Positions 24,599 to 45,176 of a stretch of 64,000 bases of DNA are shown here, piece by piece. Positions within the stretch are counted from its first letter, which is position 1. The number at the start of each line of letters is the position of its first letter. The notes beneath the pieces are model-generated. The model was not told the origin of the DNA and ran no database searches. It saw nothing but the letters and a program-made list of their open reading frames with translations. The DNA is taken from positions 8,434,501 through 8,498,500 of the forward strand of contig OX387200.1 in NCBI GenBank assembly GCA_947561715.1, written 5' to 3'. A program made the position numbers and the translations under genes. Origin of the DNA: Ascidia mentula. Its lineage: Eukaryota; Chordata; Ascidiacea; Phlebobranchia; Ascidiidae.

Positions 24599-24645
24599 TT
24601 TAATATTTATAAGCAATGTGGAGCCAATAATATGAATTGTGTATA

Positions 24646-24698
24646 AGCTGCAGACAGATGGCCACTGTTTCGACCTAAAAGGTCTCATCAGTGCAGCT
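24646..24698 (-). ncRNA. Hammerhead ribozyme, left copy
   Basis: On the minus strand, in order: stem I AGCTGCA (24698-24692); core CTGATGA (24691-24685); stem II GACC, loop TTTTA, GGTC (24684-24672); core GAAA (24671-24668); stem III ACAG...CTGT, sharing the last core A, around a 7-nt loop; the cleavage triplet GTC, ending at 24653; and stem I TGCAGCT (24652-24646). Every invariant core position of the family is present and all three stems pair fully. It is in sense orientation in a gene C transcript that extends past its stop codon. Cleavage activity is predicted, not shown. Confidence 0.85.
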
Positions 24699-24886
24699 GG
24701 TGTGACTAACAGACAACTTTGCTGACCAAACGGCCAAGCAAAGACTTCCACTTTGTGGTGACTATACAATCACCGTCATCCGTTGGGCACCAAACTAGGT
24801 GCAACCAAAACGGAGAAAACAAGGTGGAAACACTATGGCCAAGCCAGCTTTGCGTTTGGTCAGCAAAGTTGTCTGTTAGTCACACC

Positions 24887-24939
24887 AGCTGCACTGATGA
24901 GACCTTTTAGGTCGAAACAGTGGCCATCTGTCTGCAGCT
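24887..24939 (+). ncRNA. Hammerhead ribozyme, right copy
   Basis: Plus strand: stem I AGCTGCA (24887-24893) pairs with TGCAGCT (24933-24939). Core CTGATGA is at 24894-24900. Stem II is GACC/GGTC (24901-24904, 24910-24913) with loop TTTTA. GAAA is at 24914-24917. Stem III is ACAG/CTGT (24917-24920, 24928-24931) with loop TGGCCAT. C24932 is the cleavage nucleotide of a GTC triplet. Because strand ends leave from stem I, it is a type I topology. It is the same motif as the left copy, inverted. Confidence 0.87.
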
Positions 24940-24949
24940 TATACACAAT

Positions 24950-27900
24950 TTAATATTTATAGTTATTTGTTTGTTCCACACTATATGGAGGCGGAAGTCC
25001 ACTTGGTGGAGCAGAAGATGCTGCCGCTGGTGGTTTTGTCACTCCCATGTTTACCGTGTAAACAACCTCTCTCTGCAAGTAGACATTTGTTGCTGGGTTC
25101 GGTGCCGGTGTCGGGGCGGTATGTGCAGTCTGTAGAAAAAAAGGACTATTATCATGTGCTTGCATTGTAAATTTTACTACTTGAGTGAATTTGCCCTTAT
25201 GGATTTTCATTTTCGCCAAGTTATCGTAGTAGGTTTTGAAAACAGTGTCCAATAAATAGTTCGTCATAAAAGCATAAAATAATATCAAATTCAAAATCGT
25301 GTTAGTTTTAATTTACAAAAAATTAATTCAACCATTTTTGTAGAGTAAATATAATAACTATATTTCAGTTAAGCTGAACAATAAACTTGTTGCAGAGAAC
25401 AACATTGTACTCGCCGTGGTGGGAGTTGTACGTGGGGAATTTGTGGGTTTGACCTTTGCTTTTTTATTGTGTTGATGAATGACGTAACAAATTAAAAGAA
25501 ATGCCGCAACACCTCCGATTGATGCTCCGATCACAACGTCGTCTGTAAAAATTACTTGTCAGGTGGTGTTGAAGAACTTGTGTCCTAGTTTTACAAGTTA
25601 CGCTATACTACATTGCTCTATGGAATACCTAACCGGTAAAACTTAATGAAGTTAAATTTTGTTGCCTTGATTCGCCAAAATGTTAGGTTTTTTACACACC
25701 ATTTTTATCCGTTGTCTTTGTGTCCTTAGTGTTGTTGTATACATTCGTATACGAATAAGCCAATTGGTAGCAGATCTGTAACGTGGTCAGGTCGACTCCA
25801 GGGGGCGTTCCCGCATTGGTGAGATCAGGTGTATCCGGTGTGCAAGGTAACGGCCAGGAGCTGTATGAATGGTCTCATGAAAATTGTAGAGATATTTATC
25901 ACGCATCGTCTTTAAACGTGAATTCACCTGTTGCTGATGTATTTGTTCTTGCAGGGAAAGAAGGCATTATTGTGTGTTGTGCAGGGGCAGTTGCAACTTG
26001 CGCTTGTACTGCATGTCGGTTCCTTGAAAAAGAGGTTTTTCAATTAATATAATAACCCCAGACAGCGAAACATCTCTAACCACGAAAAATTTTAGAATAC
26101 AGTTGCTTTCCGCTTGATTTATACTCTTTGTGTGGTTTACCTTGATCAATAACACCATAGAATGCAACAACACTGATATTATCCATTTACTAATAGCAAA
26201 CCAATTGACAATGTGATATCAGTACAACTGGTACAGTTCATTGTTTACTGACACATAGACTACGTACTGCTGCGTTGCCGATGATTTGATTGCAGGAGCA
26301 TGAATCATATGAGAAAGAGGAGCAACTGCCTTTGTTGTTGATGACTAAAATAAAAGCGTTAGTTTCCTGCACTGGGTAAATGACGAACGACTTGCAACGT
26401 GGGTGGGAAGTTTTGCCGTGGAATTCACGTCCATTGATCTTGACCTAACATACAAACGAAATATTGAATGTTTTACTCGCTTCAAACACTATCATGGAGG
26501 CAAGTTACATTATAGTTTAGGATATGTGAGAAGTAACCAAAGCTACGAGCATAAATTACATTTGCTATTTTTATTTTTGTAGTTGAGTGTTGAACCCGGT
26601 CTTCCTCAGTCAGCTTTTGCTTTTCATTAAAAAAAGAAAAATTTCTAATTACAATGGCCAATATAGATATGACTAATACAATAAATTTGTGCAGCAGCGA
26701 ATGTGAAGTATTCAGACGGAAATATCGGTTTCTTTATAAGTGTAAAGGTTTCGTATCATAAATGTTACTCTTTTACCAAAAATGTGTGTTGAATAAGAGC
26801 GTCTTCAATATTTGAGCAGGACGTGTTTTGCATGATGCCTTGTTTCACCAGCTGGGCCGATATGCCGGGCTCTAATTCGATGACGTGTTTGTTTTCCGAA
26901 GTTCTTTTATCAGTAGTCATAATGACGAAACCTCCTTGGTCGATAATGATGCATGTGCTAAAAACACAACATTTAATCATTGGGTTTTCGCCGGCCTGGC
27001 CTAAACATCACAGTTAAACACATAGTGCTGGTCGATATTTGCTTAGTTTCCTAAAATTAACTGGTGCTACGAAATGATTTCCTCCTGAAAGTAGAGAATT
27101 TCGCCGAAAAGTAATTTTCGATAGTAACGAAGTTTGTGTTTATCTTTTATAGCCATGTTTATCGTTTGCCAATAATTTCATCAATGCTACGTTTCTATAT
27201 ACAGTTTTATTTAGCCAATAAACTACGTACTATGTTGACAATGAGTCGTTGCAAATCGGATAAAGTTGGTTCACAATTGTGGGAAAGTAATTTGCTACAA
27301 TATCGGCACCCATGGCTCCAATCAGCTTCCCAGTCGTGCTCCCTTGAACTCCAGGACTGCAGATCAAACGAGTATTATTGCTGGTAAATTTTCAACGCAT
27401 CTTTACTAATTCCCTTACCTTTTTTCGAATAAAGCTCTGGTCAGGGTGATGATGTTGATAGCACTGGCTGCGTCACTATACGGCGTCGTGATGACGTATT
27501 TGTTGCGGTTCGCTTGCGACTGCTCATACCTTGAAAACAAGGGTCAATCTTCGTGCAAATGTTGTTGGTGTGAATTTCCTTTTTTTGTTTCGATGTCGTT
27601 TCAATAAGTTTAGATTCGGAGAAAACTAAAATTATCTTTTCCGGGTCAATCGAAAGTAACGGAGCATGGCAAACATTACAGTATATGTTTCCTACTTTAC
27701 GGCTTATCTCATCCGTAGGCACAGTTTCTATGCGATCCAATAAAAATTCCATTTTTTACACCAATTGGTTACTTTGTATACACATATATGTGGGCCCTAA
27801 TACGATTCATCTACCTCAAGCACTTACCAGCCCCGTACTACCGGGTCGTAATTGTCAGGCATTCGGGTTCCTGGAAATATCCGCATGATTCCCTCTTTCG

Positions 27901-37800: not shown

Positions 37801-40800
37801 GAACTCCAGGAATGCAAAAGCAAAAAAAAGGATTTCGCGTGTATAAAACCCATTGAATGAGAGATGACAGCAACAAGGGATATCAAATGACAAAATGTTA
37901 GTCCCATAAGCTTAAAAATATGTTTTTCAGAGGTTGTTTAAAGTTAATGACTTCAAAAACAAAAAAATTATGTGATCGCCTAAAACATGATTTTCCATGT
38001 CCTTTTCATCGGTCACCATGACGCAAAAGTAATGTGATAGTTGTGCTTGTCATAAACATCGAATCGATGTGACAAAATACATAACTTAAAACTGTTAAAA
38101 AAAGCTTATTCATGTTTAACATCTTTGGCATTACCTTTAAGTTTGCCTTGTTTGTAGACACTCCCTCTATGTATTTGGAGAGTGTTTTCACGTAGCCAAT
38201 GGAGTTATTCTGGACCAAATAAAGCTCAGAATCTTGAAACGATCTTGCAGCCAATGCGACAGCGCTTTTACCTGAAGCAAAAAAAAAATATTTATTTTTT
38301 ATTGCACTGGTGTGTGGGTTTATATCGTCCAGAGCAAAACAAAAGCTCCTGGCAGATCGATTGTTGCCCAGAATTGATTGAATAAAACCGTTACCTTTGG
38401 CGCAGAAGTTTTCTACGTGACGACATGGTGTCGCTGGTTGTATCAGATCAAATCTGTGATAAAGAAAGGTTCCAGGCCGAAGTGAACCCTGTGGGGTAAG
38501 AACGGTTTGCGCGTCTTCCATTGCCAGCACAAGACACAGTGAAAACTTTGTTCCTGGTATCTGAAAGAGATTTTCATAAAAGGGTTGGATTAAACTGCTA
38601 AAACGTTTTTATTCTCCATCGGGGAAAAAACTGGCCTTTGCGCCGTTGATAAATTGGCCGTTCACGTTAATATCTTAGAAAGTCTCCGTTGATTGAAAAA
38701 TCTTTTTGTCCCTTGCTTATTCACATTCAGGTTTTCCCCTTGTCTTAATCTTACCTGTTTCCAAAGATACGTGGATCGCACTGGGACTTGTCTATTAGGA
38801 TACATTGTGCTGTCTCCCCCAGGCAAAACCCGTGTTGACTGGAATGTTTTTTCTCCGGAATCACCCCTGTACTCCACAAAAAGCATAAATATGCAAAATA
38901 ACAATTCTTTTGTGTCATATTTGTATGTTTTTCATTTCTGCGATGTAGAAAATAATTTTAATAACCCTAAGTCGTCTGTTTAAGTTTTTTTTTGATATAT
39001 ATATTTCGCCTGTGTTTGCAGGCATGGCATCATCAGTATCGCTGATTCAAATAGATTATTTTCGGCTAACCAGTTACTAAGTTTCCGTTAGTCACAGAGA
39101 CAACAGGCGATTCAAAGAAAATAAACTTTCATTTCTGCGATGCAGGTCTAAAAATTGTATTTGTTTCACTGATTTACCTTTTCATGGACTCGAACACTGA
39201 CAAAAATTCTGCATCCCGTTCGAACGCGGTCACTTTAACGAACAGCGGGTCATGGTCGGTAACATAAGGAAAGTTGGGGTGGTTTATTACCAGGCCTAAC
39301 ACCGAAAACATGGCGAGTATTTGCATTGTTACAACTCACAACATCTTTATCAATTCACGATATTATGATGTAGGATTACCTTCGTTATTTATGACAAACG
39401 AGTATGACATTTCAGTAGGTCTGAAGTAACTCGATTCCGCGAGTAGTTCTTCCATGGTTATGTCAACTGCCGTGACTCCAACCAACTTTCCTTTCACGTA
39501 GACTGGTAAACTGGCAGTCATCAATAGACCTAATAGGTTCCTTTCTTATATTCTTGTTTTGGTTTATGGGTATATTTACTCTTTTTAGAGACAAATTTAG
39601 GGTCAAAGTTTGTTAAGTTGTATGATAAGATCGATAAATGTCCATACCAAGGCCCCAGCCGTCCATATACGGAACTGTCCAAATGGGGTCTATCAGCTGA
39701 TCAGCTCGAATTGAAAAGAAATTGTAGTATGAAGCCATCTCGTTTCGAAGATTTGAAGGTTCGGTAACAGCTATATATATTCCATCCTGCCCCGATATTT
39801 AATAACATATTATGTGAGTAACAGACCTTGTCCTTCTTGCATAGAAGAACCTGTCCCTATGCGCTAGAATAAATGACAATTAAAGCAAATGCAATAATGC
39901 TGTGCAAACAGGACAAAATCTAAACTCATGCTCGTCTCATAACATGAGAAACTCCTTACCATTTACTGAGCCAATTTACATACCTTTACATCAGTGCCAA
40001 CTTCTACATGAGTGGATTGAGCCATCTGTCGCAGAATACTACCATCTAAAGGAGTAAAGCGATTTAGTGTTCATCCTTTGTTAAGGATTTTTAGAATAAC
40101 TAAAAAACGCTTTGCTCCATCGCACTTGCAAACATGCTTTTCTGGGCACATTACTTGGTATTTTACTCTCAAAGAAACGCACCAGAAAAGCAAATCTAAT
40201 GAAAATTAAAAAAAAAATTGGTATGTAGTTACCTGCATCGGGACCCAGGCCGTATGTCATGATTACCACAGAGTTTTCCAGCGCTGCATTGTGAATGTTA
40301 ATAGTTTTGAGAATCATGTTATCGGGGTCTGAAGGTTTTCCGTCCGACATAAACAGAATTGCTCGATCAACTGAAATTGGTAAATTGTAAATCACATACA
40401 GAAATGAAGCGGGAGGTATTTGCAAACGCTAGTGTATTTACAACACAAAGTCAGTCTTCTCAAAGAGTGTCAAACAAAAGAAATACTCAGAAGCTAAAGT
40501 TTTGTAATTGTTTTATTTTCCTTGGCTTTAACATGCATACTTCCAAAAAACACGAGATTAGCTAAATAAAAAATATTGTCAACGGAAAAATTAATGGTTA
40601 TGTTCGCAAGTAAAGAGCAAATTTCTTGCAACTGTAACCAATGCTATGTATTATGTGACGCTATACATTGTAAAGATCGTGCCAAATGTTCTATAGCGTG
40701 TATTTGTCAAAAAAGTCCCGGTTGCTTAGGTTTACATACCAACGGTGGAGTTGTTGACGTTGCTGAAGAAAGCAAAGGAGGTGTTCAGCGGTCGAACAAA

Positions 40801-42837: not shown

Positions 42838-43705
42838 TTTGTTTAAAAAGCTGCGAAAGGAATAAAGTCCAATAGTCAACCGATAGAACGACACTTACTA
42901 TAGTAAACTTAAGCTATAACTGACACAACACAGACCTAAACGCTGTTATTTAATTTGAATCCAATTGCGTCAACATGACTTAGCAGCATGACGTAACAGC
43001 AGCAACAGCACGAGCCACAAAACGTGAAAGTTATTCGTACTTTTCCATTTCGCCCTCAGGCTATATATTGAAATATTACATACGCAGTACACGCCAATCC
43101 GGGATGAACAAATTTATGCTCGATTTTTATATTGTAGATAAGCTTAATAATGTATTAAAATCCAAACACAGCGATCTTCAAACAGCTCAGATCGATTTAT
43201 TTAGAGAAAAATATATTTCGCCTAAAACGGCATCATCAGTTTCTCCATTTACCAAAACTGCCAAAAAGGAAAAACAGAAAGAAAAAAGTCAAGAATCTAA
43301 CGCAAAAAGGTTACGCAAGCTAAAAATAAATAAAAATTAATAAAAACTATAAAAATATTCAGGTTTCAAGCATTAACTAAAAAATAATAAAAGTATGAAT
43401 TAACTGCATGTGGTCAGACCTGTCTGTACTACTTTGCTTTCAAAAAACCACTGGCGCTGACACCGAGTGAGCACACAAACATACAGAAGCAACTGAATGT
43501 AAAAACAGAACAAAAGTGGAAGGGGAATGGACGTCACGAACTGCAGACAGGTAGGCCTGTGGGCGAACAGGTGTGACCGATAAGACTCGGTGAATGATAA
43601 GACGATAAAAACAGGTTAACAACACAGGAAAAGTCATCAACCCGTTACAGCGAAAACAAGCGCAAACAAAAACATAGTCCTACGGGCGGGGAATAGCAAA
43701 ACAAA
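42838..43705. other. Divergent D/E intergenic region, left part
   Basis: Upstream of D. An open frame at 43068-43340 has no recognisable domain and low complexity (Lys-rich). It overlaps the hammerhead-like relic at 43200-43230 and is probably repeat-derived. No other feature seen. Confidence 0.3.
43200..43230 (-). repeat. Hammerhead-like core relic 3' of the GIY-YIG ORF
   Basis: Minus strand: CTGATGA, T, GCC, loop GTTTTA, GGC, GAAATATAT. It shares ACTGATGATGCC and GGCGAAATATAT with the relic at 38997. It lies about 480 bp downstream of the GIY-YIG ORF on the same strand, where Penelope-like elements often carry hammerhead motifs. Incomplete: no stem I or cleavage site identified. Confidence 0.4.
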
Positions 43706-44230
43706 CTATTTGCATGATGGTGTTACCATGGTTTGCACATTTATTTGTGCCCGTATTCTGTGCAACCATAAGTCCTCATATAGATCCAAACTCCCTGCAG
43801 GTGGTTTTTGCACGAACGTCACGTCATAGCAACTTGGCAATATGGGTCTTTGCTGGAATGTCTCGCTATGCTTCTTCAGGTAGTGGTTACCCAGCGCCGT
43901 AGCATCGCTATCTAGCGAGCACTCGAAGTGGTACCAAGTAGACCTGTGAGCATTCCAGCGAGTGGAGAACTTGTTTTTCGTCTGCCCAACATACTGGGCT
44001 CCGCAGGTTTTGCACGAGGCCACATATATCCCATAGTCGCGACATGTTAGTCGCTGACGCAACATTATTCTGCCTTTGGGGGTACACAGGAAGGTAGTTG
44101 TGGGCACCATGGGCTCGTGGTTACCATGGTGCCCGCACAGCGCACAGTGGCCGCAAGGGGCCGATTGGCCAGTGTCCCGAGGCTCGGTGTGATGGGCAAG
44201 CTGCTTGTAGTGGCATAGTTTGTTAAACAT
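43706..44230 (-). mobile_element. Retroelement fragment with GIY-YIG endonuclease domain (Penelope-like)
   Basis: A 174-codon open frame on the minus strand. It has a Cys/His cluster, CGHCALCGHHGNH, followed by the GIY-YIG signature: YGIYVASCKTCGAQYVGQT, then FSTRWNAHR with the conserved Arg. This pairing of a zinc-binding motif and a GIY-YIG nuclease is typical of the C-terminal part of Penelope-like retroelements, where the nuclease nicks target DNA. No reverse transcriptase is visible upstream (above 44230), so the copy is 5'-truncated. It separates the divergent genes D and E. Confidence 0.7.
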
Positions 44231-44260
44231 CGTTGGTCCTTTGAAGATCGCTGTGTTTGG

Positions 44261-44354
44261 ATTTTAATACATTATTATTGATACGGTGTGCGATCGACAG
44301 CCTGCCAGGGGCCTTTGGTTTTTTTGGATCCAGATTTGATTTACTAATCACATT
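44261..44354 (+). repeat. Dispersed repeat, copy 2
   Basis: Matches 9380-9471 in gene A (TTGATACGGTGTG, GATCGACAGC, TGCCAGGGGCCTTTGG, AATCACATTG). It lies just upstream of the minus-strand GIY-YIG ORF and is probably part of the same element or its insertion target. Confidence 0.6.
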
Positions 44355-45176
44355 GGGTAGATAAGCTTATTTTGAAATGACCGAGGAAAATTTATGTTAC
44401 AATTACGATGGGTCATTCTACGTTATTCGAGTTACTGTTGATTTACTGCAAAACACTGTACATTTGATCAACTGCTCGGACACTGTGTGCAATTGTTTGA
44501 GAATAACGATACGGATACGTTGTTAATTGGTTGAAATTGAAGTTCCTTTCCTAATTATTTTTCACGCATGACCAGAATGCATAAAACAAGAAAAATCTAT
44601 TTGTGTGCAAGTTTCTGTCATTGTTTCTCCAAGTAACTTTCGAGTGTCGACGCAAATGATGGTGCCAAGTGTATTTCATCCAAACGCGATTAACTGTACG
44701 ATTTGTTATTTCATGGGTATTATATATTTCACGTAAGTTTGGTTCAATGTTGTTTGGGTGTGACCAACGTAACAAGATACCATTACATCGCGCTGTAAAG
44801 GTAACCTTCGAAACGCAATTATTAAAGTTTGTCAACCTTTTTTGGGCAATATAACCATTATGTTTTATGGATTCTTGATACTTTAGCCTTTTATGTTAGA
44901 AGTTAACAATTTTATTTAATTATTACAGATCGAATTGTTGCAGCGAAATATTAAACTTCAAAATCAAAAGTTTAACACCACTGTCCTAAATATGCAACAT
45001 GTAGTTGATTACCGAGAGTGCCTTACGTCAAACCGAAAAATACAACTTTCGATGAACGTGCAGGATATTACGTCATACCACAAGCCGAATTCCACTTGCC
45101 GATTGTCAGTGCAACATATTTTTATTTGGAAGACTCAGTAGGCCTGATTGGTCGACTGGATTGTTGTTTTTTTACA
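44355..45176. other. Upstream region of gene E
   Basis: No exon or recognisable repeat. It presumably includes the gene E promoter. Confidence 0.3.

What the first reader, a model, noticed from the sequence alone, without database searches (positions are those of the whole stretch)
24612..24948. Two complete hammerhead ribozymes in an inverted-repeat element
Both arms of a near-perfect inverted repeat carry all hammerhead parts. These are CTGATGA, a GACC/GGTC stem II with loop TTTTA, GAAA, an ACAG/CTGT stem III, a GTC cleavage triplet and a 7-bp stem I (AGCTGCA/TGCAGCT). The 13-bp direct repeat TTTAATATTTATA on both sides looks like a target duplication, so the whole foldback was inserted as a unit. 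Known hammerhead elements (retrozymes, Penelope-like elements) carry the motif in direct repeats. A mirror-image pair gives an active strand whichever way it is transcribed, and could also fold into a long hairpin that blocks both ribozymes. I infer a distinct mobile family.
Basis: partly seen in the sequence, partly recalled or inferred. Interest (0 to 1): 0.88.

Follow-up and report, generated by a model that had tools for sequence, protein, structure and literature searches.

The report
Self-cutting RNA parasite inserted back-to-back
This is one copy of a small jumping RNA element that carries a self-cutting ribozyme, and the way its copies sit in this genome points to the kind of enzyme that pastes such elements into DNA, until now only a suggestion.

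Summary
The foldback is real: a type I hammerhead on each strand at 24887-24939 (+) and 24646-24698 (-), between exact 13-bp target duplications. It is one insertion of a family with 1,222 ribozyme matches in this 195.8-Mb genome. The unit is a 284-nt non-coding monomer, also found in head-to-tail arrays: a metazoan "non-LTR retrozyme". The mirror form is not a separate family. Of 91 loci read, 48 are [-]n[+]m with ribozymes reading outward, none the reverse, 43 single-armed.

Outer ends fall at two RNA sites, about 15 and 44 nt past the cleavage site. In 36 of 48 two-armed loci both ends could be measured; all 36 use one of each, 30 with a target duplication. That is the "tail" signature of Penelope-like elements (PLEs), whose enzyme cuts and extends both DNA strands from two internal RNA sites. 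Seven of seven PLE end pairs read here show the same rule with a longer tail. Best reading: PLE-type machinery reverse-transcribes retrozyme RNA from both sides of a break. PLE involvement was proposed before from shared features; this is structural evidence. No helper PLE was identified; no RNA or activity was tested.

The parts
24599..24611 (.). left copy of 13-bp target site duplication TTTAATATTTATA
   Evidence: exact repeat; family-wide target duplications
24612..24849 (-). left retrozyme arm, minus orientation; outer end about 41 nt past the cleavage site ('tail' end), inner end about m88
   Evidence: alignment to the 284-nt monomer; end refined by target duplication, (42)
24646..24698 (-). 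type I hammerhead ribozyme of the left arm; cleavage predicted between 24653 and 24652
24847..24849. centre junction where the two arms meet (3-nt overlap of the two alignments; the exact-match measure instead gives a 7-nt mismatch/filler zone here)
24847..24948 (+). right retrozyme arm, plus orientation; inner end about m197, outer end 16 nt past the cleavage site ('short' end)
   Evidence: 17
24887..24939 (+). type I hammerhead ribozyme of the right arm; cleavage predicted between 24932 and 24933
   Evidence: relaxed Rfam hit
24949..24961 (.). right copy of 13-bp target site duplication

Best explanation
The element is an insertion of a non-coding metazoan retrozyme (284-nt monomer, type I hammerhead) made by Penelope-type target-primed reverse transcription running from BOTH sides of a staggered cut. 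Proposed steps: (1) an array is transcribed and the hammerheads cut the RNA into 284-nt units that are circularised (inferred; reported for other animal retrozymes). (2) A PLE reverse transcriptase/GIY-YIG endonuclease, probably a dimer, cuts AT-rich DNA with a stagger of about 12-13 nt (stagger shown by target duplications; enzyme inferred). (3) Each free 3' end primes copying of retrozyme RNA, one at about m15 and the other at about m44, either side of a predicted hairpin (positions shown; priming inferred). (4) Each copy runs a fraction of a turn to about six turns round the template (array lengths shown; circularity inferred). (5) The two cDNAs are joined in the middle, giving [-]n[+]m between target duplications (structure shown). 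If one side is not extended, or is lost, a single-arm copy results (structure shown).
For: Orientation: 48 of 91 loci are [-]..[+], 0 are [+]..[-], counting segments within 170 bp of each other as one insertion. Ends: in 36 of 36 two-armed loci with both ends measured (12 of the 48 could not be), one end is 'short' and one 'tail'; for the 30 with a target duplication the ranges are m10-20 and m39-51 without overlap (L045 and L046 share one duplication, so 29 events). Three more short second arms (26, about 40 and 8 nt) obey the same rule (L021, L022, L063). Target duplications: mode 12 bp, 80% AT. A divergent subfamily shows the same in L113: 12-bp duplication, ends about 10 and 38 nt past the cleavage site (read by eye). 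PLEs of this genome: 7 of 7 outer-end pairs read have one short end and one 71-85 nt longer, with shared 9-14 bp target sequences (L097/L098 by eye; in L093/L094 the shared sequence is only nine T), and a PLE array at C52:9243748-9259878 is [---][+++]. Published: the Anolis PLE cuts and extends both strands and starts at two adjacent internal RNA sites, matching the genomic tail (PMC11167929, text parts 1 and 2 of 4 read); PLE insertions with a head-to-head inverted pLTR, a 31-bp tail on one inverted pLTR and a 9-bp target duplication (PMC3846280, passages). One template per insertion: arms more alike within than between loci in 20 of 23 loci, identical in 8; full units within a locus differ by 0.7% against 2.9% between, and five units over both arms of L032 are identical.
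Against: The PLE tails read in this genome are 71-85 nt, the retrozyme's about 29 nt, and the end regions of three PLE families show no convincing sequence similarity to the retrozyme's, so no helper is named; the minimal hammerheads of these PLEs differ as well. No RNA data: circles, transcription and cleavage are not shown. Of the non-consensus bases in the compared arms, 33 are shared by both arms and 62 are in one arm only, so many differences arose after insertion or the arms had different templates; in L009 units differ more within the locus than between loci. Centre junctions show only slight microhomology (mean 1.48 against 0.65 nt for random joins, 27 joins without filler; 15 of 42 have filler or mismatch). 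Homogeneous linear multimers could serve as template instead of circles. In the Anolis work unprocessed RNA was the dominant substrate and start sites did not differ between the two DNA strands. The 2013 PLE paper preferred self-priming on an antisense template for inverted structures.
Confidence: 0.83

Rival explanations
1. Snap-back (hairpin) synthesis: one target strand primes a cDNA, whose 3' end folds back and copies itself, giving a mirror.
For: Arms of 8 of 23 loci are identical; in a large PLE array the arms are complementary over 574 nt with a 27-nt loop; self-priming was proposed for PLEs in PMC3846280.
Against: A folded-back copy should end where the first arm began or at random. 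Instead the second arm ends at the other of two fixed sites in 36 of 36 measured loci. Arms can be very unequal (L055: 0.5 against 5.9 monomers).
Confidence: 0.08
2. A foldback/MITE-type DNA transposon family that happens to carry ribozymes and is moved by a transposase.
For: Inverted repeat flanked by target duplications; non-coding; many copies.
Against: Arm lengths and inner ends vary, tandem multimers of a 284-nt unit occur inside arms, single-arm copies carry the same kind of duplications, duplication length varies (10-18 bp), and the outer ends are two scattered sites about 29 nt apart.
Confidence: 0.02
3. Mobilised by a LINE-type (non-PLE) reverse transcriptase with twin priming.
For: Twin priming gives inverted insertions with variable target duplications (recalled, not looked up).
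Against: Twin priming inverts the 5' part and leaves one 3' end (recalled); here both outer ends are the same 3' region at two fixed start sites, and the pattern matches PLEs of the same genome. LINEs of this genome were not searched.
Confidence: 0.06
4. Ordinary satellite-type tandem repeat with chance inversions or assembly errors.
For: Related ribozymes were first described in satellite DNA of newts, as PMC7229834 recounts.
Against: Dispersed copies with their own target duplications (48 of 91 against 1 of 455 controls) and a single order of orientations (48 against 0).
Confidence: 0.01

Closest known systems
Metazoan non-LTR retrozymes (Cervera and de la Pena 2020, PMC7229834; parts 1-4 of 6 read)
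   Same: Type I hammerhead, non-coding unit of a few hundred nt in dimers to multimers, no LTRs, target duplications longer than 4 bp, co-existence with PLEs.
   Different: That main text describes tandem copies ('inverted', 'head-to-head' and 'orientation' do not occur in it) and proposes PLE mobilisation from shared features. Here mirror insertions with paired short/tail ends are common.
Penelope-like elements with GIY-YIG endonuclease (PMC11167929, PMC3846280)
   Same: Head-to-head inverted arrangement, tandem/partial tandem copies, a tail on one of the two outer ends, short target duplications, AT-rich target, hammerhead close to the reverse-transcription start.
   Different: No protein coded; hammerhead with a 4-bp stem III (these PLEs carry minimal ones, e.g. 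CTGATGATGCCGTTTTAGGCGAAATA, window minus strand 43239); tail about 29 nt against 71-85 nt in this genome's PLEs.
Plant LTR retrozymes (PMC4918200, search listing only; as described in PMC7229834 and in passages of PMC7761336)
   Same: Non-autonomous, hammerhead-bearing, circRNA stage.
   Different: Type III hammerheads in direct LTRs of about 350 bp, 4-bp target duplications, thought to be moved by Gypsy elements.

Membership tests
Metazoan non-LTR retrozyme | Type I hammerhead (open stem I, closed stems II and III, conserved core) | tested here: met
   1,222 core matches with 0 reversed-pattern controls; relaxed pattern 1,735 with 0 controls. Against: Rfam below gathering score, fold no more stable than shuffles.
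Metazoan non-LTR retrozyme | Loop 1-loop 2 tertiary contact of canonical motifs | not testable with these tools
   No 3D RNA modelling.
Metazoan non-LTR retrozyme | Unit of about 170-400 nt in tandem, low GC, no coding capacity | tested here: met
   284-nt consensus, GC 47.5% (paper: below 50% in the text, below 45% in its Fig. 1 legend, so only the first is met), longest stop-free stretch 81 codons in a dimer; an arm over 1.2 monomers in 21 of 91 loci.
Metazoan non-LTR retrozyme | No LTR/PBS; target duplications longer than 4 bp | tested here: met
   Target duplication mode 12 bp; no LTR-like layout in the mapped loci; PBS not searched for separately.
Metazoan non-LTR retrozyme | Abundant self-cleaved linear and circular RNA | not testable with these tools
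   No transcript data.
Penelope-like element (as autonomous element) | ORF with RT and GIY-YIG endonuclease | tested here: not met
   Monomer is non-coding; PLE frames of 936-954 aa exist elsewhere in the genome.
Penelope-like integration mechanism | Head-to-head inverted insertions, target duplication, tail on one of the two outer ends | tested here: met
   48 of 91 against 0; 36 of 36 measured one short plus one tail; 7 of 7 PLE pairs read in the same genome.
Penelope-like integration mechanism | Helper shares its RNA recognition/start site with the retrozyme | tested here: inconclusive
MITE/foldback DNA transposon | Fixed terminal inverted repeats and fixed-length target duplication | tested here: not met
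   Two scattered end sites, variable arms and duplications.

The most novel reading that the evidence does not exclude
Integration is a two-headed rolling-circle reaction: both partners of one PLE-type dimer, each holding one side of the staggered cut, reverse-transcribe the same retrozyme RNA circle from two fixed sites flanking one hairpin, so every two-armed insertion records one circle copied twice from opposite sides of a break.
Probability: 0.4. Interest if true: 0.78.

Novelty: new variant of a known kind. Interest (0 to 1): 0.62.

Why it matters
Which enzyme spreads animal retrozymes is open: the 2020 paper and a 2024 review name LINEs or PLEs as candidates, PLEs from shared features and co-existence (PMC7229834; PMC11722881, passages). 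The paired short/tail ends give a countable genomic footprint that can be checked in any retrozyme-bearing genome. They also suggest that both sides of a PLE-type cut are extended in vivo, as a purified Anolis enzyme does in the test tube, and that one insertion event uses both start sites, which the test-tube data, with no start-site difference between strands, did not show.

Tried and rejected
Rfam at gathering threshold found nothing. Seeking a helper PLE by sequence similarity of the end regions gave nothing convincing (PLE-a 42 of 500 shuffles as good, PLE-c 387, PLE-d 396). Looking for a fixed spacing between the two inner ends, to test whether one enzyme follows the other on one template, showed no constant value by eye. 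MITE, LINE twin priming, snap-back and satellite/assembly-error readings were considered and put down for the reasons given. The first arm-identity count was contaminated by flank bases aligned at the ends and was replaced by the trimmed one. The organism was not identified: Pfam on four window ORFs gave only GIY-YIG for the PLE copy (22.3 bits, just under its cut-off of 22.6) and a sub-threshold PDC hit, and the protein search returned 25 relatives, none with a telling name. Literature: searches; papers PMC4209133 and PMC8557442 are not held, so a statement there about inverted retrozymes would have been missed.

Full report
What is there. The 13-bp repeats at 24599-24611 and 24949-24961 bound a 337-bp insert. 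It has two arms that are 100% complementary over 98 nt and each hold a complete type I hammerhead sequence, on opposite strands. A read-through transcript would fold into a very stable hairpin (-238 kcal/mol, against a mean of -92 for 100 shuffles). Rfam does not call the motif at its curated cut-off and gives only a weak, differently aligned type III match at a relaxed one; the ribozyme stretch alone is not more stable than shuffles. The ribozyme assignment therefore rests on the intact core, its repetition in the genome and the unit structure.

Family. The window lies in a 195.8-Mb, 79-contig genome; that it is an animal is my inference. The 39-nt ribozyme core occurs 1,222 times with up to 2 mismatches, with 0 matches for the reversed control. 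A looser pattern occurs 1,735 times, again with 0 controls; the 100 places listed show several subfamilies that differ in loop II and stem-loop III. Loci were taken from two sources: the 40 candidates scored as best matches to the window element (which favours mirror copies), and the exact-core matches on the capped list (contig C1 and the start of C2). L005 was dropped as a duplicate of L009, leaving 91 loci. Arrays gave a 284-nt consensus monomer (37 units; three of them from the duplicate L005, dropped), GC 47.5% and non-coding. Position m0 is the first base after the predicted cleavage.

Architecture. 48 of 91 loci are [-]n[+]m and none is [+][-]. Segments up to 170 bp apart were chained as one insertion; more distant, mostly diverged pieces in L011, L032, L040, L073 and L085 were left out as separate copies, and in L085 that left-out piece (77% identical, 250 bp away) would read plus before minus. 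In the 59-locus sample 28 are two-armed and 31 single-armed. Arms run from a few bases to 5.9 monomers. Target duplications scoring >=9 occur at 48 of 91 loci, against 1 of 455 when flanks of different loci are paired; they are present in 34 of 48 two-armed and 14 of 43 single-armed loci, mode 12 bp, 80% AT.

The end rule. In 36 of the 48 two-armed loci both outer ends could be measured; in all 36 one is short (at most m30) and the other carries the tail. In the 30 that also have a target duplication the ranges are m10-20 and m39-51; in the other 6 the ends are less sharp (short 17-28, tail 47-59). L045 and L046 share one target duplication and are one event. Of 42 single-armed loci examined for a very short second arm, 21 had a target duplication; three of these have such an arm (L021, L022, L063; the last only 8 nt), each complementary to the first; 14 have the duplication within 3 nt of the inner end, 7 with a short and 7 with a tail outer end; in the remaining 4 (L062, L079, L086, L089) 7-22 nt between arm and duplication are not accounted for; 21 showed no duplication. 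Subfamily B, about 67-73% identical to A in the longer stretches that align, shows the same rule in L113: 12-bp duplication, ends about 10 and 38 nt past the cleavage site (read by eye). By eye L112 and L114 look the same; L115 is unclear.

The same rule in PLEs. The genome gives 151 matches to the GIY-YIG part of a PLE among the 150 of 1,007 candidates that were scored, among them frames of 936-954 aa. The GIY-YIG hits of the PLE pieces lie just below Pfam's cut-off (22.3 and 21.0 against 22.6); of two relatives scanned, one has RT above and GIY-YIG below the cut-off, the other GIY-YIG above it. The array at C52:9243748-9259878 has three copies in each orientation, minus first. Seven of seven PLE end pairs read have one short and one 71-85 nt longer end, with shared target sequences of 9-14 bp. 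Caveats: for L097/L098 the script picked another shared 18-mer and the 14-bp duplication was read by eye; in L093/L094 the shared sequence is nine T. PMC11167929 (parts 1 and 2 of 4 read) reports that an Anolis PLE cleaves and extends both strands, prefers AT-rich DNA, and starts reverse transcription at two adjacent internal sites that explain the genomic tail, which it calls unique to PLEs. PMC3846280 (passages read) describes head-to-head inverted pLTRs, a 31-bp tail on one of them and 8-10 bp target duplications.

One template per insertion. Arms of the same locus are more alike than arms of different loci in 20 of 23 loci, and identical in 8; but of the non-consensus bases 33 are shared by both arms and 62 lie in one arm only. 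Full units within a locus differ by 0.7% on average, between loci by 2.9%; of six loci with two or more full units five follow this and L009 does not; in L032 five units across both arms are identical. This fits a single RNA copied in rounds from both sides, but a homogeneous linear multimer would look the same.

Start sites. The predicted circular fold places m18-m50 in a hairpin, with the two start sites at its feet. A motif in this stretch is shared by subfamilies A and B (4 and 30 of 500 shuffles as good), while the ends of three PLE families show no convincing similarity. The hairpin as recognition site is inference.

Verdict. The 'distinct mirror family' does not: it is a retrozyme family whose insertions carry the PLE footprint. 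[quoted passage not shown] I found no report of the paired-end signature in retrozymes in the listings and the passages I opened from them, but subscription papers, preprints and supplements were not searchable.

Noticed in passing
window 43134-44368, minus strand: A 5'-truncated Penelope-like element: GIY-YIG reading frame 43706-44263, minimal hammerhead starting at 43239, 12-bp repeat (GTAGATAAGCTT on the plus strand) at 43134-43145 and 44357-44368.
   Followed up: partly
window about 39000-39036, minus strand: A second minimal PLE-type hammerhead (CTGATGATGCCATGCCTGCAAACACAGGCGAAATA); the surrounding element was not worked out.
   Followed up: no
L094, last 120 bases: A diverged retrozyme hammerhead (loop III TGTGTACA, cleavage triplet GTT, by eye) next to the end of a PLE array.
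   Followed up: no
L101 (C52:9250700-9252400): Centre of a [---][+++] PLE array: arms complementary over 574 nt with a 27-nt loop, so both arms stop within 27 nt of each other in a 3.5-kb unit. Hard to explain by independent truncation; it could mean two enzymes on one template or fold-back.
   Followed up: partly
L045/L046, L050-L052, L010/L025: Retrozyme loci that look duplicated with their surroundings (same target duplication or same truncation), i.e. possible segmental duplications.
   Followed up: partly
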